Shown here: positions 13,613 to 30,972 of the stretch, piece after piece
How the letters are laid out: each line of letters opens with the position of its first letter
Numbering within the stretch: position 1 is the first letter of the stretch
Source of the DNA: Candidatus Latescibacterota bacterium
Lineage (GTDB): Bacteria; Hydrothermota; Tepidihabitantia; Tepidihabitantales; CAIPLT01
Length of the DNA stretch: 38,708 nt
Reading direction: 5' to 3'
NCBI GenBank assembly: GCA_018335915.1
Contig: JAGXRL010000122.1
Span: 1-38,708, forward strand
The notes under the pieces: generated by a model
The model's database searches: none
Seen by the model: the letters and a program-made list of their open reading frames with translations, nothing else
Told to the model about the DNA's origin: nothing
Program-made: the position numbers and the translations under genes

Positions 13613-14350
13613 ATGGCGATGCGAAAAAATATACCAGCACTGGTTGCGATTGTAAACCGTAAAAAAGATTGGCATATTATCTGCAATCAGCACTGGTATC
13701 GGATTCCAGTCAAGAGCGCGCCCGATATACTAAACAACGCGAAATATATCGCTTTTTATCAAACTAAACTATTTAAACAGGAACAATACTCAGTCAATTA
13801 TTATGCCAAGATTATGAATATCGAAATCTGCAAGCGCTGCCAATTACTGCCTGATGAACCTGAACACAAACGGGCAAACCAGGATTATTATAAAATTTTA
13901 ATTGATGATGTAATAAACTTACCAAAACCGATTCCGAGTTTACGCTGGCGTCGCATCACTTTTATTCCAACTACGCTATCAAGATTACTCAAAGCCGAGG
14001 AAATCAATGATTTATGGTGCACCAGCTTTATCGAAGATAAATTATACAACGCATTAAAAAAAGAAGACCTTGCTGCGGAACGGCAATTTTTTGTCTATGA
14101 TGCGGATACACCGTATTGCCTGGATATGGCAATTTTCTGTAAAGACGGTAATCTTAATGTCGAATGCGATGGTGAGAAATATCATTCTGATATCAAAACC
14201 ATTCGAAAAGACCGTCAAAGAAACAATGACCTGACAACTGCTGGCTGGTCAATTCTCCGTTTTTCTGGCAAAGAGATTAATCAAGATACCCAAAAGTGTG
14301 TCAAACAAATTAAACAGACCGTAAAAAGATTAAAAGGCATTAATAGATAA
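13613..14350 (+). CDS. DUF559 endonuclease-domain protein
   Basis: This 245-residue protein has a C-terminal DUF559 (very-short-patch-repair-like, PD-(D/E)XK) domain. The sequence CLDMAIFCKDGNLNVECDGE gives the catalytic Asp and the E-x-D pair, followed by KDRQRNNDLTTAGWSILRFS, which is the family's typical 'R..Y/L...G....R' end. The first 110 residues include ICKRCQLLPDEPEH, a single CxxC that does not form an evident zinc site, and have no recognised domain. The biological role is unknown. Such genes are often horizontally acquired. It converges with the following minus-strand gene and overlaps its end by 11 bases. Confidence 0.8.
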   Translation: MAMRKNIPALVAIVNRKKDWHIICNQHWYRIPVKSAPDILNNAKYIAFYQTKLFKQEQYSVNYYAKIMNIEICKRCQLLPDEPEHKRANQDYYKILIDDVINLPKPIPSLRWRRITFIPTTLSRLLKAEEINDLWCTSFIEDKLYNALKKEDLAAERQFFVYDADTPYCLDMAIFCKDGNLNVECDGEKYHSDIKTIRKDRQRNNDLTTAGWSILRFSGKEINQDTQKCVKQIKQTVKRLKGINR

Positions 14351-15648: not shown

Positions 15649-15676
15649 TTGACATTGATTAAATTAAACTTATAAT
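15649..15676 (+). promoter_or_regulatory. Promoter of the ATPase-helicase operon
   Basis: A perfect TTGACA (15649-15654), a 16-nt spacer and a perfect TATAAT (15671-15676). The mRNA would start at about 15683, leaving a leader of about 20 nt with aaagga just before the ATG at 15703. This is the strongest consensus promoter in the window. Confidence 0.8.
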
Positions 15677-15702
15677 ATTAGATTAGACTTTATAAAGGAA
15701 AT

Positions 15703-16554
15703 ATGCTATCTGATTTAGAAAAATTAATCTCACAATTAACGAAAATTAAAAAGAAGCTGGACACGCTTGGCGCATTAACACCAGAACAGATAAGTGCCAA
15801 ACCGTATGAAATTGAAGCACATATCTCAGACATCAGCAGACAGTTAAACACCCCTCCCCTGCCAGAAATGCTCGGCGAGACTAAATTATTTCAGGAACTG
15901 AAAAACCTCTACGCGCAAGAACAGGAAAAAATAGATAACTCTAAACAAGAATTTCGTTTTAATATCGGTAATCAATTTAAAGATTTGTTATCCGGATTTG
16001 GTGAGTTAAAAGGACAACTACCAGTTCTGCGGGTGAAATTCTATACGATAAAATTCGATTTTAATAATGGTGAAGCAACCATCTGGTGGGGACCAGAAAA
16101 AGAATTAATCAAGAAACTGAACTTAGAACCGGTTGCGATTGTTGAAACGCTAAAATCTTTTGACCAAAATCTTACTGTCAAATGGAACCAATACCTGGAC
16201 TTCTTAAATATTATCAAACAAGCTTATAGTCGTTATCTCAAACTGAACAGTCTCAATTTTGGAGAAAAAGTCAACCTGTTCGATTTATTGACCGAAGTTG
16301 TCATATTAATGCAGGGAAAAAGTTTTAAGACCGACCCAACCAAATCTCATTTTACTGACTATTCCCGCATCCAGTACAGTTATGACTTATTCCGGCTGAA
16401 AACTGACAGCGCTTTGATGTCAAATATCCAATTATCAGTCGCTACTTTTGCGATTACTGAAGACCGAGCAAAATCGCTCTGGGTGCCGGATAAAGAAACC
16501 GGTGACGGCACTTATTATCAAACAATTGCTTTTAGAAAAGATGAACACGAATGA
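15703..16554 (+). CDS. Unrecognised coiled-coil protein, first gene of the ATPase-helicase operon
   Basis: I do not recognise this 283-residue protein. The first about 75 residues are charged and helical (DLEKLISQLTKIKKKLDTLG), likely coiled coil. A beta-type stretch follows (VLRVKFYTIKFDFNNGEATI then WWGPEKELIKKL), then helices, and near the end VATFAITEDRAKSLWVPDKE and GDGTYYQTIAFRK. There is no signal peptide or membrane segment. Its stop codon and last residues (DEHE) come from the left arm of a Family 2 repeat, so the original C-terminus may have been slightly different. It has the operon's promoter and a Shine-Dalgarno site. By position it is probably a partner or target-recognition subunit of the downstream ATPases and helicase. 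Confidence 0.7.
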   Translation: MLSDLEKLISQLTKIKKKLDTLGALTPEQISAKPYEIEAHISDISRQLNTPPLPEMLGETKLFQELKNLYAQEQEKIDNSKQEFRFNIGNQFKDLLSGFGELKGQLPVLRVKFYTIKFDFNNGEATIWWGPEKELIKKLNLEPVAIVETLKSFDQNLTVKWNQYLDFLNIIKQAYSRYLKLNSLNFGEKVNLFDLLTEVVILMQGKSFKTDPTKSHFTDYSRIQYSYDLFRLKTDSALMSNIQLSVATFAITEDRAKSLWVPDKETGDGTYYQTIAFRKDEHE

Positions 16555-16632
16555 CACTAATATACGAATATCACGAATAACCCTTGAAATTTAAAATTCG
16601 TGTTATTAGTTTCATTCGTCTTATTCGTGGTT
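16544..16632 (+). repeat. Family 2 palindromic repeat, copy without a gene
   Basis: The left arm aacacgaatgacactaatat and right arm ttcgtcttattcgtgg, with an internal ttcgtgttattag, match the arms around the GxxExxY gene at 4264-4707. Here the spacer between the arms is only about 14 nt. The left arm supplies the stop codon of the upstream gene. Confidence 0.8.
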
Positions 16633-16648
16633 AAAAAATAGATTAAGC

Positions 16649-17935
16649 ATGGATAAACGCGAAGCATTATTAATTATCAACAAACTCGGCAGTACTGGCA
16701 CGCCGCCGGAAATAGGTATTGAAGAATTTACCATCGGACTCGATAAATATCTCAAAGTAGTCGATTCTGAATACTTAAACGGCATCTTGAAAAACTATCA
16801 TCTCTCTTCATTCAAAATCGTGATTGGCAATTATGGCGGCGGCAAAACCCATTTTCTTTATTCAATCCGCAATCTTGCTTTTAAAAATAATTATGTGGTT
16901 GCTTATGTTGCTTTAAATCCGACTGAATGTCCGTTTGACAAGCTGGAACTGGTTTACAAACAGGTTATCAATAATATTCAGATACCAGCCCCGGATAATG
17001 ATATTATGACTCCGCCGATTACTGGTATTGAAGCGTTTATCGAGCACTGGTACAACTCGGTCAAAGAAAAAATCAATCACATCGATGCAATTAATGATTA
17101 CTTAAATGTATTAAAAGGCGTTGAGAGCATCAGTTTCTTGAATGCGGTTAAATCTGCTTTCTTTAATATTGCCAGTGATAATTATGAAGAGTTTCAGGCA
17201 GTTTTACAATATCTCAAAGCAGAAGACATTTCCAAAGATATCAAAGCCCGTTACCGTATCTCAGAGCGGGTTGACAAATCGACCGCCTTTCGGATGATAA
17301 GAAGTCTGATTCAATGGTTACATCTGATTGGTTACAATGGTGTTATTTTTCTGTTTGATGAAGCTGAGCGCGGCATTTCAATGTCCAGCTCAAAAGACAA
17401 GCGCAAAGCTTTGGATAACCTGCGCCAGATTGTTGATGAATGCGGCAACAGCCGGTTGCCTGGCGCAATGTTTTTCTATGCAATCCCAGATGAAAATCTT
17501 TTATTAGAAGGTTCGGGCGGCGTGTACGAAGCATTAAAACAGCGCTTGCGCAGTGTCTTTTCCCAGGTCAATCCCTTAGGAGTGAAAATTAATCTGGAAG
17601 AACTCGGTATTGCACCTGAAGATTTTCTGATTTCTCTCGGTCAAAAACTGGTCTCTATCTTTGAAACCGCTTACTCGTTCAAACTGGATAAAGATAAAGC
17701 ACAGGCATTAATTGAGCATATTGCGGACGAATCTGCCAAAGCATTTGCGTATGATATCAGTTATCGCCGGCTCTTTGTGGTCAGTTTGATTGAAACCCTG
17801 CAAAGAGTCCGCAATGAACCCGATTCTCTGCAATCAATTTTAACAAGCAGTAAAGAAACCCAGAAAATAATCAAGACTACTGGTAAAAAGCTCGAAACAC
17901 AAACCAAACAGGAAGTAACCGATTCAGAGTTTTAG
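16649..17935 (+). CDS. BrxD/DUF2791-like P-loop ATPase, first of two
   Basis: This AAA+-type ATPase has 428 residues. Walker A is GNYGGGKTHF (residues 60-69) after the strand FKIVI. Walker B is GVIFLFDEAERG, with Asp237-Glu238. The following block SSKDKRKALDNLRQIVDECG leads into a sensor-like strand GAMFFYAIPDENLL. The layout (short N-terminal domain, P-loop near residue 60, DEAE Walker B, then R-rich helices) matches DUF2791 proteins, which include BrxC/BrxD of BREX phage-exclusion systems. No Shine-Dalgarno site is evident, since a repeat fills the gap upstream. It is followed by a second ATPase and a helicase. It is likely a DNA-associated motor or loader, and the exact role is unknown. 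Confidence 0.72.
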   Translation: MDKREALLIINKLGSTGTPPEIGIEEFTIGLDKYLKVVDSEYLNGILKNYHLSSFKIVIGNYGGGKTHFLYSIRNLAFKNNYVVAYVALNPTECPFDKLELVYKQVINNIQIPAPDNDIMTPPITGIEAFIEHWYNSVKEKINHIDAINDYLNVLKGVESISFLNAVKSAFFNIASDNYEEFQAVLQYLKAEDISKDIKARYRISERVDKSTAFRMIRSLIQWLHLIGYNGVIFLFDEAERGISMSSSKDKRKALDNLRQIVDECGNSRLPGAMFFYAIPDENLLLEGSGGVYEALKQRLRSVFSQVNPLGVKINLEELGIAPEDFLISLGQKLVSIFETAYSFKLDKDKAQALIEHIADESAKAFAYDISYRRLFVVSLIETLQRVRNEPDSLQSILTSSKETQKIIKTTGKKLETQTKQEVTDSEF

Positions 17936-17960
17936 TTTGCTAAAGATGTATAAAAAAATT

Positions 17961-17992
17961 ATCCGTGTTCATCTGTGTTAATCCGTGGTTAC
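17961..17992 (+). repeat. Family 1 right-arm repeat
   Basis: atccgtgttcatctgtgtta then atccgtggttac, ending 4 nt before the ATG at 17997. No left arm is present. Confidence 0.75.
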
Positions 17993-17996
17993 AAGT

Positions 17997-19415
17997 ATGA
18001 TAAATAATAAAAAAGTTTCACATCCGGTTTTTGGCGCCGGTGAACTTTTATCAATCCGTAAATCATCAGCCGGTATTCAGACCGAATGTTTAATCCGTTT
18101 TGACTCGGGTCTGCAGTTATGGATTCCATCCAATCGGATTCAGGGACTGGAACCAGAATATCACGACCAGGTTCCTGAAAACGGCGTCGTTTTAAGCCAA
18201 GAAGAATTAAAAATCAAAGCCCATCGCATGATTGAAGCATTCAGATTAGGAATCGTGCCGACCCAGGATGTCGCGGATTTTACTTTTGGTCGGGAACGCG
18301 AAATTAATCTTATCTCGTCTGCTTTAACCAGTCTTACTAATGGCAAAGGCGGCACTATTATTTTTGAAGGTGAATATGGCACGGGTAAATCGCATCTTTT
18401 AGAATATATCCGCAGCCAGGCACTCAAAAAGAATTTTCTGGTCTCCTCAGTTGAATTATCAACTGAAGAAACTGCGCCAGCCCGGCCCAAACGAATCTAT
18501 CGCGAATTGATTGCCAATCTGCGATTTTTATCCAACAACAAACAACCAATAACTGACGCGAAGCGTAGCATTAGCAACAACCACATTGAAGCCGGATTTC
18601 GCGACTTAATGCGCGATGCGACTCAGCAGTACACAGAGCCCGATTATCTCGGTATTAAAGAACACATCTTTTTCGCACCAGTATTAAAACGCTTGTCAAA
18701 AATCGATGACCAGAGTTTAAAATCTGAAGTCTTCTGGCAGTGGATTGAAGCGGAAAGCACCAAAGAATATGCAGTCGGCACTTCAACAAAAACCGACAAG
18801 TATATGTCGCCTTATCGTATTTCTGGCGGTTGGAACATCCCTGCTCTTTATGATTTTTCCACTGCGGCAGATTTTTATTGTTATCTAATATCGGGCTTAT
18901 CCTATCTGTCCCGAAAACTCAATTATAATGGATTGGTTTTATTACTCGATGAAGTCGAGACCATTGCATTCTTATGGAACAATCTTTTATTTGAGCGGGG
19001 AGTCAATTTTCTGGAAAGTATGATTCGGGTCTCGCACAATGACCCGACCTTAAAACATTTCAATAAACAAATGCTGCATAATCAAGTGCGGCCAACTCCT
19101 TATATTTATAAAGATGCTTATGTCTTGTTAATCCTGGCTATGACTCCTGAACCAGCTGCCTTACGGCTCAAACAATTATCGCATAATGATATTAATCTTA
19201 ACCCGCTCAGTGAAGAGCATCTTAATGCTTGTTTTGAGACTCTGGTTAAACACTATAAGATTGCTTTTCCAGATTTGTCTTTAGCAGACTCAACCAAGCA
19301 AAAAATATTGACTAATGCTTTGCGCTATCAGGACAACGGCATCCGCTTCTTTCTAAAGTACACTGTCGAAAGCTTGGATGTAATTAGAATAAACCGAAAA
19401 TTAGCAGTAAATTAA
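17997..19415 (+). CDS. BrxD/DUF2791-like P-loop ATPase with N-terminal Tudor/KOW-like domain, second of two
   Basis: This protein has 472 residues from the ATG at 17997. An in-frame GTG at 17985 lies in the repeat and is rejected. Residues 5-50 (VSHPVFGAGELLSI through IRFDSGLQLWIPSNRI) resemble the small KOW/Tudor-like domain seen at the ends of UvrD-type helicases and in CarD-like proteins. FGREREINLI starts the ATPase. Walker A is EGEYGTGKSHLLEYI (about 124-138), and Walker B is NGLVLLLDEVETI (Asp318-Glu319). Between them a roughly 170-residue insert contains TDAKRSISNN, whose DNA resembles a repeat unit at 21616-21640. Together with the first ATPase it may form a hetero-oligomer. DUF2791-type membership is inferred from motif spacing. 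Confidence 0.72.
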   Translation: MINNKKVSHPVFGAGELLSIRKSSAGIQTECLIRFDSGLQLWIPSNRIQGLEPEYHDQVPENGVVLSQEELKIKAHRMIEAFRLGIVPTQDVADFTFGREREINLISSALTSLTNGKGGTIIFEGEYGTGKSHLLEYIRSQALKKNFLVSSVELSTEETAPARPKRIYRELIANLRFLSNNKQPITDAKRSISNNHIEAGFRDLMRDATQQYTEPDYLGIKEHIFFAPVLKRLSKIDDQSLKSEVFWQWIEAESTKEYAVGTSTKTDKYMSPYRISGGWNIPALYDFSTAADFYCYLISGLSYLSRKLNYNGLVLLLDEVETIAFLWNNLLFERGVNFLESMIRVSHNDPTLKHFNKQMLHNQVRPTPYIYKDAYVLLILAMTPEPAALRLKQLSHNDINLNPLSEEHLNACFETLVKHYKIAFPDLSLADSTKQKILTNALRYQDNGIRFFLKYTVESLDVIRINRKLAVN

Positions 19416-19428
19416 TATTCAGTCCATT

Positions 19429-19517
19429 GTCATTGCGCTGTTGGTGTAAGCCAACCCTGGCAATCTCTAAAATTGGAGATTGCTTCGGGGTTGCTTTCGC
19501 AACGCCCTCGCAATGAC
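19429..19517 (+). repeat. Family 4 palindromic repeat (GTCATTGCG...CGCAATGAC)
   Basis: The outer arms GTCATTGCG (19429-19437) and CGCAATGAC (19509-19517) are perfect inverted complements. Inner arms ggcaatctct and ggagattgctt also pair, so the whole element can fold into one long hairpin. It ends 8 nt before the helicase start. A partial relative lies at 5380-5400. Confidence 0.85.
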
Positions 19518-19525
19518 CAGATAAT

Positions 19526-21601
19526 ATGACAAATATCAAAGAACTTCTTCACCGGACCTATTTCCCCTTTTTCAGCCGTTTTGGAAATCTAACTGAAGTG
19601 CAGAAACAGGCAATACCTGCAATAATGTCTGGCAAAGATGTCCTGGTTGTTTCACCGGCCGCTTCTGGCAAAACCGAAGCAGTGGTCGCACCCATGATTG
19701 AGAGAGCATTAGAACATGGCTCGAATCGTTTTGCAATAATATATATCTCACCAACCCGTGCTTTGGTTAATGATTTATATCGCCGGCTTGTTGACCCTGT
19801 AACATATTTAGAATTAAAGATTGATAGGAAAACTGGCGATTATCCGACCATCAACGAAAAAGACCTGCCATTTATCCTTATAACTACTCCCGAATCCTTT
19901 GATTCTATGCTCTGCCGTCATCCCAAAATATTTGCCAATCTGTCCGGTGTGATTTTGGATGAACTCCATTTATTAAACAACACGCCCCGCGGCGACCAGT
20001 TACGAATCTTACTTACCCGATTAGAACGGTTAAGAAAAAGTATGGGTAAAACTGAGCAGCTTAGTTATTGTGCGCTCTCAGCTACAGTCGATGATTTAAC
20101 AATGAGTAACTTATATTTTCCCAATCCAGAAAACATTCAGGTCATCTGTGTCAAACTGTCGCGTGAAATCGATTATGAATTAGTGCTTGGTCAGAATGAC
20201 TATATTCCCAGACTAATCAACCATTTTATCCAAAAAGACTTTCGAAAAATTCTCTGGTTTTTCAATGCCCGCAGTCTAGCTGAAGGATTTTTACAGACCT
20301 TGAAACAGAAAAAATGCCCTTATCCGGTCTGGGTTCATCACTCGTCTTTGGCACGAAAAGAACGGGAGCAGATTGAACATCTGATGACCCGTGAACCGCG
20401 CGGCATTTTATGTGCGACTTCAACTCTGGAATTGGGCATTGATATTGGTGATGTTGATTGTGTTGTCCAGTACCGTCCGCCCTTTAACATCAGTTCTTTA
20501 TTGCAACGAATTGGCAGAGGTAATCGTCGCAATCAAAATTATCTCTATGCGGTTGGTATCTATTTATCATTCATTGATAAAATATTATTCGAGCTCTTTT
20601 TTGAATGTGCCAAAGCCGGTACTTTATACGAGCACTCGTATTCTGCATCCTTATCCACTCTTCCCCAGCAAATTTTCTCTTATGCGTTTCAGAGACGCCG
20701 AATCGGCTTGACGCTTGATGCGATTGATAACATCACAGAAAATTATCTGTCTGAATCGCCTCAACTTAAAAAACAGGTCTTTAATTATCTGGTCGGTCAG
20801 GACTATCTGCAACCTGCCAAATCTGGCATCTATTTTCTGACTGACAAACTGGAAAAGAAAGTCGAATACGGCAAAATTCATTCCAATATCCAGGAAAAAA
20901 GTTTTGGCTCGTATTCAGTATATAATGCCGAGTCTGGTACTTTTTTAGGACAGGTCTTTTACTTAAGCGAGCGGTTTATTCTGGGCGGCAAATCATATGA
21001 ACTGATGCGGGTAGAAGAAAAAGAAAAGCGGGCATTTGTCCGGTATTTAAAAGAAACAACCGGTACGACCAGAGTATTTGAAGGCACTGGTACAATCGGT
21101 TATCATTATAAATTGATACCATTATTCCTAAAAAAGTTGTTTGCAAAGTATGTTGATTCGATTGACGGCTTTCCCTATTTTATCGAGAATAAGCAAGTTC
21201 ATATCATCCATTTATTGGGCGGACTTTATACCTATATTATCAAACAGGCACTCAACAAAGAAGACGCCAAAGTAACTGATGTTTCCGGATTAATGTTTAT
21301 CTTTGCCCAACCCAAAACCGGACCAATCACTTTTCCGATTCCCAGTGAGTCTGCAATCCGTGAAGTGATTGGTGAAAACCTGTTAAAATTTGATGACAAT
21401 CTTGGCTCGGGCGCATTCTTCAGATTTTTACCCAAAGAACTCCAGATTGAAGACCATTATCGGGCATTGGATATGAACGGTTTGCTCCAATTCCTGCGAA
21501 TCCAGAAACTGACCCAAATCAAATCAGAAATGTGGCTCGATTTTGAAAACAGTCAGAAAGATACTGAGAAAACCACAGAAAAGACCGAAGACAAAGAATA
21601 A
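19526..21601 (+). CDS. Lhr-like superfamily 2 helicase (BrxHI-like)
   Basis: This ATP-dependent SF2 helicase has 691 residues. Motif I is SPAASGKTEAVV (residues 43-54), Ia is ISPTRALVNDLY, II is ILDELHLLNN (DELH, 145-148), and III is LSATVDD (185-187). V is ATSTLELGIDIGDVDCVVQY and VI is LLQRIGRGNRRNQ (327-335). The DELH box and 'GRGNRR' form fit the Lhr family (COG1201). The roughly 350 residues after the helicase core differ from the long Lhr C-terminal region. A DUF2791 ATPase followed by an Lhr-like helicase is also the order of brxD-brxHI in type 2 BREX. The tail (residues 675-691) is Glu/Lys-rich. There is no Shine-Dalgarno site, and a palindromic repeat precedes the ATG. Confidence 0.82.
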   Translation: MTNIKELLHRTYFPFFSRFGNLTEVQKQAIPAIMSGKDVLVVSPAASGKTEAVVAPMIERALEHGSNRFAIIYISPTRALVNDLYRRLVDPVTYLELKIDRKTGDYPTINEKDLPFILITTPESFDSMLCRHPKIFANLSGVILDELHLLNNTPRGDQLRILLTRLERLRKSMGKTEQLSYCALSATVDDLTMSNLYFPNPENIQVICVKLSREIDYELVLGQNDYIPRLINHFIQKDFRKILWFFNARSLAEGFLQTLKQKKCPYPVWVHHSSLARKEREQIEHLMTREPRGILCATSTLELGIDIGDVDCVVQYRPPFNISSLLQRIGRGNRRNQNYLYAVGIYLSFIDKILFELFFECAKAGTLYEHSYSASLSTLPQQIFSYAFQRRRIGLTLDAIDNITENYLSESPQLKKQVFNYLVGQDYLQPAKSGIYFLTDKLEKKVEYGKIHSNIQEKSFGSYSVYNAESGTFLGQVFYLSERFILGGKSYELMRVEEKEKRAFVRYLKETTGTTRVFEGTGTIGYHYKLIPLFLKKLFAKYVDSIDGFPYFIENKQVHIIHLLGGLYTYIIKQALNKEDAKVTDVSGLMFIFAQPKTGPITFPIPSESAIREVIGENLLKFDDNLGSGAFFRFLPKELQIEDHYRALDMNGLLQFLRIQKLTQIKSEMWLDFENSQKDTEKTTEKTEDKE

Positions 21602-21684: not shown

Positions 21685-21834
21685 CCAGAAAAAGAATTAT
21701 TTTAACTACAGACAAACACTGATAAACACAGCTTATAATTTTTAATTATTAATTTTTGGATTTTGATATTTCATTTTGATTTTTGATGTTTGATTTTTGA
21801 TTTTTTAATTACTTGCGGTATGCTTCGCCTTCCC

Positions 21835-22103: not shown

Positions 22104-23300
22104 TTACAATAGATACTTAATAATCTTATGTGAGATATTATTATTAAACTGTATTTTCAAACATTTATGAAACTGGGCAATATTGTCTAATGTCTTATTA
22201 AATGCTGGTCTGAATTTTTTATAGTCAATCTTATGCTTATGTAGATGCAGATTCTGAACCAATAAAGTTTGATTAACCCGGTCTGCTTTTAAGTCAATTA
22301 AACCGACCAGTTCACTATGCCATAATACCGGTAAACTGAAATAACCATATTTTCGCTTATGTTTTGGAACATAACACTCTAAAGTATAATCAAAACCGAA
22401 CAATGCTTTAGTCCGGTTTCTTATGATTATCAAATTATCAAATGGGGACAGAAAATGAACTTGATTACTTGGATTAATTTTATCTTTGTTCAATTTTACT
22501 AAATCTTTACTTAAAATATAATACGGATTTTTTAAACCCTCAATCTCAACCGGCTCAATCTCCCCTGTTTTCAGCATCGACTTGATATATGGCGTTAAGT
22601 TCTTTTTAATCGAGATATAGTTACGCATATCATATTCGCTCGCAACACCCAGTGCTTTCAAAGCCCGCTTTACAAAAAACTCTTTTTCTTCTTTATCACT
22701 CGGCATTGATAAATCCAGTCCTTTTGGCAAAACCCGTTCAGTCAAATCATACACACGCTGAAAACTTCTCCGTTCTTTGACAATCAGAATTCCCTGCCAG
22801 AAAAGAATCTCCAGCGCCATTTTTGCCGGTTTCCAGTCCCCCCACGGACCGCGCTTGCGGTTTGGTTCGTCAGAAAAATCACTCGCGCTTAACTCCCCGT
22901 CCTTTTCAATCCGGCTTCTGACAATCTTTAAGACTTTCCGGTTTTCTTTTATCCAATTACTAATCCACGAACCATAAACATGCTTTTGTTTCATTCGTGG
23001 CAGATAATACCGATAATCTTTCATTGGCACAAATGATGCGGCATGCGCCCAATACTCAAATATCTTTTTATCTTTTGCCTGCAACTCGTGCAGATGATTA
23101 TGCTTGTATTCTGGGTTACGGGTAAAAAGCACAAGATGATGCGACCGTTCAATCACGCTGATTGTATCAATTTGGACATAACCAAGCTGGTCAATAATTT
23201 TATAAGTCCCAGGTTTTCCTATTGGTGTTATATTATCAGCTAATAGTTGTTTCTTAAGAAAAAGTTCCCGCGCTTGTTTACGAGTAATCTTTAAAGGCAC
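22104..23300 (-). CDS. AlkX/YcaQ-type winged-helix DNA glycosylase (HTH_42)
   Basis: This protein of about 398 residues belongs to the YcaQ/HTH_42 family, monofunctional DNA glycosylases that excise bulky alkyl adducts and unhook interstrand crosslinks. VPLKITRKQARELFL is the typical N-terminus. YVQIDTISVIERSHHLVLF contains the catalytic Q-hydrophobic-D triad (the AlkX/YcaQ form, not the QxQ of AlkZ). EYWAHAASFVPMKDYRYYLP is another conserved block. The GTG at 23300 is chosen over a longer GTG frame at 23324, because a TTGACA/TATATT promoter ends 7 nt upstream of it and the alignment with relatives begins there. It is monocistronic and convergent with the ATPase-helicase operon, with a tandem array between them. 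Confidence 0.82.
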   Translation of the reverse strand: MPLKITRKQARELFLKKQLLADNITPIGKPGTYKIIDQLGYVQIDTISVIERSHHLVLFTRNPEYKHNHLHELQAKDKKIFEYWAHAASFVPMKDYRYYLPRMKQKHVYGSWISNWIKENRKVLKIVRSRIEKDGELSASDFSDEPNRKRGPWGDWKPAKMALEILFWQGILIVKERRSFQRVYDLTERVLPKGLDLSMPSDKEEKEFFVKRALKALGVASEYDMRNYISIKKNLTPYIKSMLKTGEIEPVEIEGLKNPYYILSKDLVKLNKDKINPSNQVHFLSPFDNLIIIRNRTKALFGFDYTLECYVPKHKRKYGYFSLPVLWHSELVGLIDLKADRVNQTLLVQNLHLHKHKIDYKKFRPAFNKTLDNIAQFHKCLKIQFNNNISHKIIKYLL

Positions 23301-23307
23301 AGATTTT

Positions 23308-23335
23308 AATATATAGATATTCACCTTATTGTCAA
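23308..23335 (-). promoter_or_regulatory. Promoter of the glycosylase gene, leaderless
   Basis: On the minus strand, TTGACA (23335-23330), a 16-nt spacer and TATATT (23313-23308) end 7 nt before the GTG at 23300. Confidence 0.65.
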
Positions 23336-26598: not shown

Positions 26599-28464
26599 AT
26601 GCGTTTTTTGGTAAAGGGTATTTTATTAGTCGGTTTCATTGTCAGCGTAATTCACGCCGACCAGCTAAAAATTTATCAGATTGATGTTAATACTGGTGAT
26701 GCGGCGTTGATTGTTTCGCCAACAAACCAGTATATCTTGATTGATGCCGGTCATATTCTGGGAAATTATGGCGATACTGTATTAACATTCTTAAGGAATT
26801 TGGGAATCACCCATCTCAACCATATCCTCACATCCCATTATCACGAAGACCATATTGGTGGAATGGCGCGGGTAATATATGGTTTAAGCGGAGCGAACAA
26901 TAACGATTCAATTTTAGGCTGGTGTTATGACCGCGGCGATACTTATACCACCGCAACTTTTCTTGCTTATAAAGCAGCTGTTGGTCTCAAGCGTAAGACT
27001 GTAACTTTGGGTGAAACTTTGGATTTGGGTGGCGGTGCGTTTATGTTTTGTGTTGCCCGTAATGGTAAAGTTATGAATGGCGACAGTGTTCTGCCCACTT
27101 CTGGTGAAAATTACCGCTCTCTGGCATGGGTGCTTGAATATGGACTCTTTAGATTTTTTACTGCTGGTGATCTGGTTGGTTATAATATTTCTGGCGAACG
27201 CGATGTTGAAACTAAAGTTGCCCCTGTTGTCAGAAAAGTTGACGTCTTAAAGGTCAGTCACCATGGCAGTCGTAACAGTTCTAATCCTACTTTTTTAGAT
27301 TCGCTGCGACCAACCGCAGCTATCATATCTCAAGGCACGGTGCCGAATAATAATGGACATCCGCATCAAGAAGCATTGAACCGCTTAGCCGCACGTAACA
27401 GCTATATTTATCAAATGAATGATAATCCTACGGGCGGTCTGATTCCGCCTGGTTCAGGCAGGATTTTAAATACTACTGCAGTAGTTACTGTTAATCAGGC
27501 ATCTTATACTGTAAATGGTGATGAATATATATTAACCGGTGTTCAACGGGATGCGGCCTGTCTTGAAATTTTATCTCCGCTTGATACGATTACCGAAGCG
27601 TCAATAATCACGCCCCATGCTCGGATTAAAAACTTAGGTAATACCACCGAATCATTCAGAGTTAGATTCAGAATCGGAGATAGTTATAATCGAATCCAAA
27701 CTATCTCTGGTTTGGCGCCAGGTGATACAATGACTGTTGTTTTTGATACGATGTGGTATGCGATGCGCGGTAATTATCTGGTTACCTGCTCGACCGAAGT
27801 ATATGGTGATACCTCCTCTCTCAATGATAAACAGACCGGTCAACTCACCGTCGCGTTTTATGACAGCGAAGTTCAGAATATTTTAGAACCTGTTTCAGGC
27901 GTAATCTACTATTACTATGACACAATCACACCGACTGCAATCATTAAAGACAATTCTGAATATAGTTATCCGACTTCAGTTAAAATTTTCAGCCAACTCA
28001 GAAATAACAGCCAAATAATATATCAGGATTCAACTGAGCGAACCTCGATACCGGGCACTATTGATACCGTCATCTTTACTCCTTACCAGATTGCGAGTAA
28101 TGATGAAGGAACCTATCTCTGTTCAGTCTGGGTGCGCCGTGATAATGACCTGATACTAAATAATAACTATCAGGTCAGTCAATTTACCATATTGAATCCG
28201 AATCATATCAGTGAAGAATTATCATCTTTGAATGACAATAATCAAACTTACCGAACTGTTGACATTAAGTTATTCAATGCGGCGGGCCGATTATTACATA
28301 CGCGGACAATCTACAATCAACCTGCCCGTATAAATTATAATTCTCTAAACTGGATTAACAATTTGCCGCCCGGTATTTATTTTATGCACTCAATTGCGAC
28401 TCCATCCGAGAATAAACTAAAGCCGGTAAAATCAACCCGAAAAATACTGATCCTACCCCATTAG
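26599..28464 (+). CDS. Secreted metallo-beta-lactamase-fold (ComEC/Rec2-type) protein 1
   Basis: This 621-residue protein has a signal peptide (FLVKGILLVGFIVSVIHA). A metallo-beta-lactamase domain occupies about residues 22-300: HYHEDH (HxHxDH at 80-85), AGDLVGY with the bridging Asp191, and KVSHHGSRNSS (His221/222). The 'SHHGS' form is that of the ComEC C-terminal domain, which is nuclease-like. About residues 310-530 hold two beta-sandwich repeats of CARDB-like type (FRVRFRIGDSYNRIQTISGL). The C-terminus FNAAGRLLHTR...LPPGIYFMHSI is a sorting tail. The metal site is complete, so it may be an extracellular phosphodiesterase or nuclease. The adjacent paralog begins 6 nt after its stop. Confidence 0.82.
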   Translation: MRFLVKGILLVGFIVSVIHADQLKIYQIDVNTGDAALIVSPTNQYILIDAGHILGNYGDTVLTFLRNLGITHLNHILTSHYHEDHIGGMARVIYGLSGANNNDSILGWCYDRGDTYTTATFLAYKAAVGLKRKTVTLGETLDLGGGAFMFCVARNGKVMNGDSVLPTSGENYRSLAWVLEYGLFRFFTAGDLVGYNISGERDVETKVAPVVRKVDVLKVSHHGSRNSSNPTFLDSLRPTAAIISQGTVPNNNGHPHQEALNRLAARNSYIYQMNDNPTGGLIPPGSGRILNTTAVVTVNQASYTVNGDEYILTGVQRDAACLEILSPLDTITEASIITPHARIKNLGNTTESFRVRFRIGDSYNRIQTISGLAPGDTMTVVFDTMWYAMRGNYLVTCSTEVYGDTSSLNDKQTGQLTVAFYDSEVQNILEPVSGVIYYYYDTITPTAIIKDNSEYSYPTSVKIFSQLRNNSQIIYQDSTERTSIPGTIDTVIFTPYQIASNDEGTYLCSVWVRRDNDLILNNNYQVSQFTILNPNHISEELSSLNDNNQTYRTVDIKLFNAAGRLLHTRTIYNQPARINYNSLNWINNLPPGIYFMHSIATPSENKLKPVKSTRKILILPH

Positions 28465-28470
28465 CACTAA

Positions 28471-30972
28471 ATGAAAATAAGATACTGGATATTCATATTA
28501 TTAATCTTCTTAAATTTTCTCTGGGCACAAAATCCGCTTAAGATATATTGTATTGATGTCAATCAAGGTAGTTCGACGCTAATTGTTTCCCCAACTAATA
28601 AATATGTTTTGATTGATGCTGGAGATTCCCAAGGTAATTACGGCGATTCCGTTTTTCGATTTATCAGAAATTTAGGTATTACTCATCTAGACCATACTAT
28701 CGCAACTCATTATCACTCCGACCACATCGGTGGTTTTCGAGTTGTTATCTGCTCTTTAAGCGGGGGTGCTGGTCGTAACGATTCCATATTAGGTTTTTGT
28801 TATGACCGGGGAGATACCTATACGACCGCTACTTATCTTAATTATAAATCAATCGTAGATTTAAAGCGCAAGACCATTGAATTAGGAGAAACTTTGGATC
28901 TGGGTGGCGGTGCTTTTATGATTTGCATTGTCAGTAATGGTAAAGTAATGAATGGGGACAGTGTTCTTCCTAATTCTGGCGAGAATTACCGCTCAATCGG
29001 ATTGTTGTTAAAATACGGTTTTTTTGAATGCTGGGTTGGTGGGGACTTAACCGGTTCTTCAGCTAATAATGAGCGTGATGTTGAAACCATTGTTGCTCGA
29101 GTAGTCGGAGATATTGATCTTTATATTGCAAATCATCATGGCAGTAAACACAGTTCTAACAGCACTTTCTTAGATTCGCTGCGTCCCGAAGTTACAATTT
29201 TCTCACAAGGTATCCACCCATTTAACTACGGACATCCACATCAAGATGTTATTAACCGTCTGATTGCCCGTAATTCCTATCTCTACCAATTGAATGCAAA
29301 TTTAGACAGTAGCGGAATATTTCAGATTCCGGATTCTGGGAAGATCCTCAACACTTCTGCAGTTATTACGGTTGACAATTTTGAATATATTGTTAATGGA
29401 GACACCTATCCGATTGACGATGTGCGGCGCGATGGAACCGTTGTCGAAATCGTCTCGCCTAAAGATACGATTTCCGAAGGTACTGTTATTACACCCAGAG
29501 CAAAAATTAAAAACCTGGGCAATGTTACCGAAACATTTTCAATAAGATTTAAAATTGGTTCGATTTATAACCAGACCAAAACCATATCCGGACTTGCTCC
29601 CAATGACACTATTACCATAAGTTTTGATACAACCTGGACCGCGATAATCGGTAACTATCAAATTACATGTTCTACGCAAACGCCCAGAGATATAAATTCT
29701 GCTAATGACAAGAAATCTGCAAATCTAACCGTAATTCCAATAACTTTTGGTTGGCAAAAAAAGAAGGATATTGAAAAATCAGTTAAAGACGGTGGCGCGC
29801 TGGTTACTGCGCAAGGAAAAATCTACGCCTTTCCTGGTAACAAGACGCTGGATTTTTACTGTTATGACCCATCCATTGATATCTGGCAAAAGAAAGAATC
29901 GATTCCGTTCTGGTATAAATCTGGCAAACCGATAAAAAAATCTGTCAAAAAGGGCGGGGCATTGACTTTTGGTCAGGACAATTTAGGTCGCAGTGTAATA
30001 TTTGCTATCAAAGGTAATAATACCAAAGAATTCTGGAAATATCTTATTGCCCAGGATAGTTGGATTTTTGAATGTGAACTAACTATTGCTTTCAAGGGTG
30101 GTTCTGCGCTGGCTTATGTTTCCCGAGCACAAAATGACAAATCAGTATATGTTTTATGGGGAAATAATAAAGAATATAAATTCAGGGCGTATAATGCTAT
30201 TGCGGGAACATGGATTGATAAAGACTCTTCTCCCAAAGGCAAAGATAACAAAAAATTCCGAGATGGCAGTTGCATGGTTGCGCTCAGAGATTCAATTTTT
30301 GTTTTAAAAGGCGGCGCCAAGTATAATGAATTTTATTGCTATGACATTGTCCGGGACACCTGGGTCGAACTCGAACCATTACCTCAAAATCATCCTGACA
30401 TCAATCGTAAGAAAAAAGTGAAAGCAGGCGGTGCCATAACTTATGATGCTCATACTAATAAAATATATGCTTTCAAAGGCGGCGGTACTCAGGAATTCTG
30501 GAGTTATGACATTGCTCAAAACTCATGGACACCTAAAGAAACAATTCCAAAAGACACATCGGATAGCAAGAAAAGTATTGTCAAAGCAGGCGGCAGTCTG
30601 ACTGCCCTATCCGGGATTATCTATGCGTTCAAAGGTAATAATCGAACCGAATTCTGGCAATACCGACCAATGCAAACTGAAAAAACTGATATTGTCAACC
30701 GCCTTCACTCCCGCTCTGACCAGGCGAGTTATGTTGACCACGCACAACCAACCCCTCAATCCGAAATTAATAATAACAATATTCAGTTACGAAATTTAAA
30801 AATCACGATATTTAATATTGCCGGACAGGTTTTGAAAACAGAAAAAATACCTGACCTGCAATCCATAAATCAAGTTAAACAAAATCTAACACCAGGAGTC
30901 TATTTTATATCAATTACTCCGCAAGACCAAAACTCAATAAAATTCAGCAAAAAAATAGTCATCCCCCATTAA
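28471..30972 (+). CDS. Secreted metallo-beta-lactamase-fold protein 2 with kelch-like repeats
   Basis: This 833-residue paralog of the upstream gene has a signal peptide (WIFILLIFLNFLWA) and a metallo-beta-lactamase domain at about residues 22-300, with ATHYHSDHIGG, VGGDLTGS and ANHHGSKHSSN. One CARDB-like domain follows. From about residue 420 to 735 there are five or more kelch-like repeats of the form KxGGAL...IYAFKGNNTxEFWxYD...DSW (for example GKIYAFPGNKTLDFYCYDPS), a likely beta-propeller. The tail FNIAGQVLKTE...LTPGVYFISIT is a sorting signal. The first gene has a second sandwich where this one has the propeller, which points to module exchange after duplication. It is in an operon with the first gene (6-nt gap). 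Confidence 0.82.
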   Translation: MKIRYWIFILLIFLNFLWAQNPLKIYCIDVNQGSSTLIVSPTNKYVLIDAGDSQGNYGDSVFRFIRNLGITHLDHTIATHYHSDHIGGFRVVICSLSGGAGRNDSILGFCYDRGDTYTTATYLNYKSIVDLKRKTIELGETLDLGGGAFMICIVSNGKVMNGDSVLPNSGENYRSIGLLLKYGFFECWVGGDLTGSSANNERDVETIVARVVGDIDLYIANHHGSKHSSNSTFLDSLRPEVTIFSQGIHPFNYGHPHQDVINRLIARNSYLYQLNANLDSSGIFQIPDSGKILNTSAVITVDNFEYIVNGDTYPIDDVRRDGTVVEIVSPKDTISEGTVITPRAKIKNLGNVTETFSIRFKIGSIYNQTKTISGLAPNDTITISFDTTWTAIIGNYQITCSTQTPRDINSANDKKSANLTVIPITFGWQKKKDIEKSVKDGGALVTAQGKIYAFPGNKTLDFYCYDPSIDIWQKKESIPFWYKSGKPIKKSVKKGGALTFGQDNLGRSVIFAIKGNNTKEFWKYLIAQDSWIFECELTIAFKGGSALAYVSRAQNDKSVYVLWGNNKEYKFRAYNAIAGTWIDKDSSPKGKDNKKFRDGSCMVALRDSIFVLKGGAKYNEFYCYDIVRDTWVELEPLPQNHPDINRKKKVKAGGAITYDAHTNKIYAFKGGGTQEFWSYDIAQNSWTPKETIPKDTSDSKKSIVKAGGSLTALSGIIYAFKGNNRTEFWQYRPMQTEKTDIVNRLHSRSDQASYVDHAQPTPQSEINNNNIQLRNLKITIFNIAGQVLKTEKIPDLQSINQVKQNLTPGVYFISITPQDQNSIKFSKKIVIPH

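What the first reader, a model, noticed from the sequence alone, without database searches (positions are those of the whole stretch)
15649..21601. Four-gene operon: unknown coiled-coil protein, two tandem BrxD-like ATPases and an Lhr-like helicase, without other BREX genes
The sequence shows one strong promoter and four same-strand genes: an unrecognised 283-residue protein, two different P-loop ATPases with DUF2791-type motif spacing (one with an N-terminal Tudor/KOW-like domain), and an SF2 helicase with a DELH box. From established knowledge, type 2 BREX contains a brxD-brxHI (ATPase, Lhr-like helicase) pair, but always with pglZ and pglX, which are absent here. Ter-related DNA-processing operons with ATPases and helicases have also been described. 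Inference: this is a stand-alone DNA-processing or defence module in which two ATPases load or drive the helicase and the first protein gives specificity. The ATPases differ enough to suggest a hetero-complex.
Basis: partly seen in the sequence, partly recalled or inferred. Interest (0 to 1): 0.8.

Follow-up and report, generated by a model that had tools for sequence, protein, structure and literature searches.

The report
Conserved four-gene ATPase–helicase operon
Four neighbouring genes in this uncultured WOR-3 bacterium encode an unknown protein, two DNA-loader-type ATPases and a helicase; they form a real machine found across bacteria and archaea, related to phage-defence parts but inherited in WOR-3 like an ordinary core cell function.

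Summary
In detail: a perfect-consensus promoter and four same-strand genes, ORF1 (no known family), two BrxC/BrxD-family ATPases and an Lhr/BrxHI-like helicase. The order recurs in WOR-3 (the window's phylum) and in Aminicenantes, Zixibacteria, KSB1, Myxococcota, Acidobacteriota, archaea, an actinobacterium and two plasmids. It is neither BREX nor Shango: ATPases and helicase form their own clades, and ORF1 is unrelated to PglZ or TerB. Two branches exist. A "Tudor" branch, including the window, has an ORF3 with an N-terminal UvrD/PcrA-like Tudor domain. A Tudor-less branch includes both plasmid copies; one follows a type 2 BREX locus directly. In WOR-3 the genes behave like core genes: present in 27 of 28 genomes of the window's order, following the rpoB tree, ORF2 as conserved as RpoB, mostly kept even where the operon has broken up, with a conserved near-consensus promoter before ORF1. 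I favour a genome-maintenance machine: an ORC/Cdc6-type ATPase pair controlling the helicase, docked through Tudor and ORF1. Anti-phage defence remains the main rival.

The parts
15649..15676 (+). Promoter TTGACA-N16-TATAAT, the single promoter of the operon
   Evidence: 12/12 consensus; conserved upstream of ORF1 only, 19 of 24 WOR-3 loci at >=10/12
15703..16554 (+). ORF1, 283 aa, new family: long N-terminal helices plus alpha/beta C-terminal part; no nuclease motif recognised
   Evidence: no family; AlphaFold2 pLDDT 93; no significant Foldseek match; homologous to plasmid-branch ORF1, hhalign 96.7%, E 4.6e-10
16649..17935 (+). ORF2, 428 aa, BrxC/BrxD-family ATPase, most conserved subunit
   Evidence: PF10923 2.2e-45; identity to relatives equals that of RpoB
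16826..16849 (+). ORF2 Walker A GNYGGGKT (residues 60-67)
   Evidence: near-invariant in 16-29 orthologues
17351..17362 (+). ORF2 Walker B LFDE (residues 235-238)
   Evidence: FDEAE invariant
17985..19415 (+). ORF3, 476 aa (probable start ATG 17997), second BrxC/BrxD-family ATPase with ORC/Cdc6-like fold
   Evidence: PF10923 4.2e-27; Foldseek top hit archaeal Orc1/Cdc6 3.7e-05
18012..18128 (+). UvrD/PcrA-like Tudor domain at the N-terminus of ORF3 (HPVFGAGEL...FDSGLQLW)
   Evidence: small beta domain in the model; the only PDB matches to its profile are UvrD/PcrA Tudor chains, E 0.02-0.05; motif kept across phyla
18369..18392 (+). ORF3 Walker A GEYGTGKS (residues 129-136)
   Evidence: conserved
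18948..18953 (+). ORF3 Walker B acidic pair D322 E323
   Evidence: invariant
19526..21601 (+). ORF4, 691 aa, SF2 helicase, Lhr/BrxHI/SngC-like
   Evidence: SngC 1.6e-65, BrxHI 6.5e-65; Lhr-type TIGR04121 1.8e-55; Lhr structures 5v9x, 7lhl among the best PDB matches
19652..19675 (+). ORF4 helicase motif I SPAASGKT (residues 43-50)
   Evidence: conserved
19958..19969 (+). ORF4 helicase motif II DELH (residues 145-148)
   Evidence: D145, E146, H148 conserved at >=85%

Best explanation
The four genes encode one machine with a core, chromosomal genome-maintenance role in WOR-3. Shown here: the four genes co-occur, lie behind one conserved near-consensus promoter, and are inherited vertically; ORF2 and ORF3 are two distinct BrxC/BrxD-family ATPases, and ORF3 has an ORC/Cdc6-like fold plus a Tudor-like domain; ORF4 is an Lhr/BrxHI-like helicase. 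Inferred: ORF2 and ORF3 form a mixed ATP-driven clamp or loader, as ORC/Cdc6-type ATPases do; it places and switches on the ORF4 helicase on DNA; ORF1 is the adaptor that holds or recruits it; the Tudor domain docks the machine on a protein partner, possibly RNA polymerase as in UvrD/PcrA, so that it clears obstacles such as stalled forks, R-loops or stalled transcription.
For: Near-universal, single copy: 27 of 28 genomes of the order have at least one component, the f9 and f10 families 25 of 27. Co-occurrence in 147 genomes: ORF1 with ORF2 56 together, 3 discordant, Fisher 5e-37; ORF1 with ORF4 51 together, 12 discordant, 7e-26. Components are kept after operon break-up in several families. 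Trees share 11-16 of 22-23 splits with rpoB, shuffles at most 3. ORF2 identity to the window tracks RpoB: 82 vs 77%, 57 vs 53%. Fixed sites among housekeeping genes. Constitutive-type promoter conserved. ORC/Cdc6-like fold; Tudor. No phage or viral contig homologue.
Against: All closest relatives of known function are anti-phage parts (BREX type 2, Shango). A plasmid copy directly follows a BREX type 2 locus. Three families of the same class (10 genomes) lack all components searched, so it is not essential in the whole class. Mfd and the AddB/RecB-type nuclease domain are present with and without it, so no obvious function is replaced. No activity has been measured. The Tudor match is weak (E 0.02-0.05). 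Loader-helicase and Tudor-RNA polymerase contacts are inference.
Confidence: 0.55

Rival explanations
1. It is an anti-phage or anti-plasmid system, a sister of Shango and of the BrxD-BrxHI pair of BREX type 2: the ATPases load the helicase onto invading DNA, ORF1 senses or recruits. In WOR-3 it has simply become fixed.
For: PADLOC SngB, SngC, BrxD and BrxHI are the closest named relatives. The Aulosira plasmid has ORF1-4 directly after pglZ-brxD-brxHI. The Desulfomonile plasmid copy lies a few kb from AbiE toxin-antitoxin genes. Spread across distant phyla and archaea. ORF1 evolves faster than the rest. Shango has TerB, ATPase and helicase and is anti-phage (PMC10250203).
Against: Vertical, single-copy, near-universal in the order, RpoB-like conservation of ORF2, retained when genes are scattered; little sign of defence islands in WOR-3 flanks; no nuclease or other effector recognised.
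Confidence: 0.3
2. The two branches have different jobs: the Tudor-less branch (both plasmid copies) is defence, the Tudor branch was domesticated for transcription- or replication-linked repair. This overlaps with the best explanation for the window itself.
For: The Tudor domain is absent from ORF3 of the two plasmid copies and the actinobacterial one, and present in most of the rest; ATPases and helicases of the two branches form separate clades; the BREX neighbour is in the Tudor-less branch.
Against: Only three Tudor-less-branch loci were compared; some Tudor-branch loci also lack the domain (L069, L131, L134); direction of change was not rooted.
Confidence: 0.3
3. The genes are neighbours by chance and do not work together.
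For: Operons do break up in several WOR-3 families.
Against: The same order in many phyla, near-perfect co-occurrence even when unlinked, single shared promoter.
Confidence: 0.02

Closest known systems
Shango (SngA-SngB-SngC)
   Same: BrxD-like ATPase followed by an Lhr-like helicase in one operon; ORF4 best PADLOC hit is SngC
   Different: One ATPase, not two; first gene is a TerB protein unrelated to ORF1 (hhalign probability 0.4%); separate clades; mobile defence-hotspot system (PMC10250203)
BREX type 2 (BrxD-BrxHI pair)
   Same: ATPase of NCBIfam BREX_BrxD family and Lhr-like helicase; PMC12839542 proposes that BrxD loads BrxHI
   Different: BrxD cut-off not reached (123.6 vs 350 bits); no BREX-sized pglZ in the own genome; second ATPase with Tudor and ORF1 are extra; separate clades
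Lhr helicases (TIGR04121, M. smegmatis/E. coli Lhr)
   Same: SF2 helicase core; Lhr structures among the best PDB sequence matches
   Different: 188 bits against a cut-off of 850; only the helicase core matches
UvrD/PcrA C-terminal Tudor domain (RNA polymerase binding; PMC5397179, PMC8318588)
   Same: HPxFGxGxV motif and small beta domain
   Different: Sits at the N-terminus of an AAA+ ATPase, not at the end of a helicase; weak E; RNA polymerase binding untested
ORC/Cdc6 AAA+ ATPases
   Same: Foldseek best matches of the ORF3 model
   Different: 12-13% identity, low TM-scores (about 0.3); no origin binding known

Membership tests
BREX type 2 | pglZ, pglX and brxC/pglY in the same locus | tested here: not met
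   Own contig holds none by ORF listing and family scans of the operon and neighbours; the only PglZ match in the own genome is a 399-aa open frame close to a contig end, on another contig; in single-contig relatives PglZ hits are far from the operon and about 500 aa long, against about 900 aa in true BREX-2 loci. pglX itself was not searched by profile in the genome.
BREX type 2 | BrxD above NCBIfam cut-off (350 bits) | tested here: not met
   123.6 and 71.5 bits
Shango | TerB-domain SngA as first gene | tested here: not met
   No TerB match; profile comparison with SngA 0.4%
Shango | One SngB ATPase and SngC helicase in the same clades as known ones | tested here: not met
   Two ATPases; ORF2, ORF3 and ORF4 fall outside the SngB and SngC clades
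PF10923 BrxC_BrxD ATPases | Score above curated cut-off, intact Walker A and B | tested here: met
   155.7 and 95.5 bits against 22.2; motifs conserved
Lhr/BrxHI-type SF2 helicase | SF2 motifs and best match to this family | tested here: met
UvrD/PcrA-type Tudor | Sequence and fold match | tested here: inconclusive
   Only UvrD/PcrA Tudor chains match, but E 0.02-0.05; beta domain in the model
UvrD/PcrA-type Tudor | Binds RNA polymerase | not testable with these tools
   Needs pull-down
Anti-phage defence system | Protects a host from phage | not testable with these tools
   Needs plaque assays
Anti-phage defence system | Patchy, horizontally moving, in defence islands (typical, not strictly defining) | tested here: not met
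   In WOR-3 vertical and near-universal in the order; plasmid copies exist outside WOR-3

The most novel reading that the evidence does not exclude
A previously undescribed, widespread prokaryotic machine in which a pair of ORC/Cdc6-like ATPases, one with an RNA-polymerase-type Tudor domain, loads an Lhr-like helicase to clear stalled transcription or R-loops; part of the BREX and Shango machinery would then be relatives of a cellular repair machine.
Probability: 0.25. Interest if true: 0.82.

Novelty: new variant of a known kind. Interest (0 to 1): 0.62.

Why it matters
BrxD-BrxHI and SngB-SngC are parts of phage-defence systems whose mechanism is unknown. Here the same ATPase-helicase core, with a second ATPase and a new subunit, behaves like a core gene set in a bacterial class: ORF2 is as conserved as RNA polymerase. 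That offers a stable, phage-independent setting in which to find out what this core does, and bears on whether defence systems took it from cell maintenance or the reverse.

Tried and rejected
ORF1 as TerB/SngA or PglZ relative: rejected. ORF1 by Foldseek (PDB, viral) and PDB sequence search: no significant fold match; the sequence hits cover mainly the helical N-terminal third. Operon as replacement for Mfd or AddAB/RecB-type repair: rejected, both are present in nearly all or most of the 147 genomes. BREX pglZ elsewhere in the genome: the phylum-wide PglZ hits are about 500-aa proteins found with and without the operon, PorX-like by size (inference). Homologues in phages and viral contigs: none. 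PADLOC scan of flanks: a few scattered defence-type hits, not an island; no random-gene control was run.

Full report
1. Observation. The four ORFs and the promoter are as described. The window is the whole 38,708-base contig C122 of a 1.93 Mb, 159-contig genome. Its relatives are labelled candidate division WOR-3 / Stahlbacteria. ORF2 and ORF3 are the only PF10923 proteins in the genome.

2. What each gene is. ORF1 has no match in Pfam, NCBIfam or PADLOC. Of 30 homologues scanned, none gives a consistent Pfam hit. Its AlphaFold2 model is confident (pLDDT 93): long helices in the N-terminal third, then beta strands and helices. It has no significant Foldseek match in PDB or viral structures. 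ORF2 and ORF3 are BrxC/BrxD-family ATPases, with 155.7 and 95.5 bits against a cut-off of 22.2. The ORF3 model resembles ORC/Cdc6 ATPases; the best hit is an archaeal Orc1/Cdc6 at E 3.7e-05. ORF3 begins with a small beta domain whose profile matches only UvrD/PcrA Tudor chains in the PDB, at E 0.02-0.05. Two residues mutated in the RNA polymerase-binding work on PcrA, H681 and the aromatic W684 (PMC5397179), appear to correspond to H13 and F16 here. The position that would match the PcrA lysine K712 varies (my alignment from memory; not tested). ORF4 is an SF2 helicase closest to SngC and BrxHI, and to Lhr by NCBIfam and PDB.

3. Conservation of the operon. Relatives keep the order ORF1-ORF2-ORF3-ORF4, commonly with overlapping or touching genes. 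A scan of the species-level genome collection found the same set, in whole or in large part, in Aminicenantes, Zixibacteria, KSB1, Deltaproteobacteria, Oligoflexales, Thermoanaerobaculum, Myxococcota, Methanomicrobiales, ANME-1 and a Microbacteriaceae genome. Two plasmids carry it: Desulfomonile tiedjei pDESTI.01, and Aulosira laxa plasmid3 where it directly follows a pglZ-brxD-helicase locus of BREX type 2. The WOR-3 and plasmid/actinobacterial ORF1 profiles are homologous over 246 columns (96.7%, E 4.6e-10). ORF1 is not related to SngA or PglZ.

4. Inheritance in WOR-3. Of 147 genomes, 58 have ORF1, 57 ORF2 and 56 ORF4. ORF1 and ORF2 agree in all but 3 genomes (Fisher 5e-37), ORF1 and ORF4 in all but 12 (7e-26); many of these are fragmented or incomplete MAGs. 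These Fisher tests ignore shared ancestry, so they describe association and are not independent events; the break-ups below are the stronger argument. In the window's order 27 of 28 genomes have a component; families f6-f8 of the same class have none in 10. In several families the operon has split: f2 and one f9 genome keep ORF1-3 together with ORF4 elsewhere; f37 keeps ORF1, the ORF2-ORF3 pair and (in three of five genomes) ORF4 at separate places. A mobile defence cassette would be expected to lose parts after scattering. Gene trees share 13 (ORF2), 14 (ORF3), 16 (ORF4) and 11 (ORF1) splits with the rpoB tree, where 999 shuffles reach at most 3; distance correlations are 0.80-0.89. Identity of ORF2 to the window copy is 82, 77, 69, 60 and 57% where RpoB gives 77, 70, 72, 62 and 53%; ORF1 is the fastest. 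The operon sits at fixed places among ordinary genes shared by related genera.

5. Expression. A promoter with at least 10 of 12 consensus bases lies within 90 bases of ORF1 in 19 of 24 WOR-3 loci, 8 of them perfect, and never before ORF2, ORF3 or ORF4 (0 of 70); flanking genes have 46 of 225. In many loci the -10 box ends only 5-9 bases before the ORF1 start, so the transcript should begin at or near the start codon (inference). This fits one constitutively transcribed unit.

6. Family placement. In a tree of 45 ATPases, ORF3 (Tudor branch), ORF3 of the Tudor-less branch, ORF2 of the Tudor-less branch, BrxD and SngB each form a separate clade with 100% support; ORF2 of the Tudor branch groups together, its support label being unclear after rerooting. 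In a tree of 23 helicases, ORF4, the Tudor-less ORF4, BrxHI and SngC are separate (96-100%). The Tudor motif is present in most ORF3 proteins of the chromosomal branch, including archaeal and myxobacterial ones, and absent from L148, L150 and L151. The system is therefore a third kind of BrxD-type ATPase plus Lhr-like helicase system, beside BREX type 2 and Shango, with two branches.

7. Mechanism. PMC12839542 proposes that BrxD loads or activates BrxHI, by analogy to helicase loaders. I extend that: ORF2 and ORF3 as a mixed ORC/Cdc6-type assembly that loads and controls ORF4, ORF1 as adaptor, Tudor as docking site. In UvrD/PcrA the Tudor binds RNA polymerase and helps suppress R-loops (PMC8318588). 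Conservation and inheritance argue for a cellular role in WOR-3; kinship and the BREX-adjacent plasmid copy argue for defence. Neither was tested by experiment. The operon does not replace Mfd or AddB/RecB-type nucleases.

8. Verdict. The defence reading is open; the 'specificity' role of ORF1 is a guess. I found no description of this four-gene system in the papers searched, which is a partial library.

Noticed in passing
WOR-3 loci L086-L102, upstream of ORF1: The -10 box often ends 5-9 bases before the start codon, which suggests that leaderless mRNAs may be common in WOR-3; perfect consensus promoters are also frequent before flanking genes (12 of 225).
   Followed up: partly
window 22104-23324 (-): AlkZ-like DNA glycosylase gene (PF06224, 2e-66), convergent with the helicase gene; also beside the operon in the close relative L083. 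Bacterial Lhr has a C-terminal part resembling AlkZ (PMC10953399 abstract).
   Followed up: partly
window 13613-14350 (+): 245-aa protein with a C-terminal REase-fold domain (MTES_1575/DUF559), just upstream of the operon region; not seen next to the operon in the relatives compared.
   Followed up: no
147 WOR-3 genomes: A PglZ-domain protein of about 500 aa occurs once in most genomes of the phylum, with or without the operon; by size it looks like a PorX-type response regulator rather than BREX PglZ.
   Followed up: no
L151:1660-13554 (Aulosira laxa plasmid3): BREX type 2 pglZ-brxD-helicase followed directly by the four-gene system on a conjugative plasmid: possibly a composite defence locus.
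   Followed up: partly
window 26599-30972 (+): Two tandem proteins of 621 and 833 aa, probably secreted, that match each other; the second has metallo-beta-lactamase and Kelch-type matches.
   Followed up: no
window 21738-21805: Short AT-rich degenerate repeat (ATTTTTG, about 10 copies) in the spacer after the operon.
   Followed up: no
L132, L133, L136, L142 and other non-WOR-3 loci: ORF4 is about 530 aa there against about 690 aa in WOR-3, so the C-terminal part is shorter or missing.
   Followed up: no
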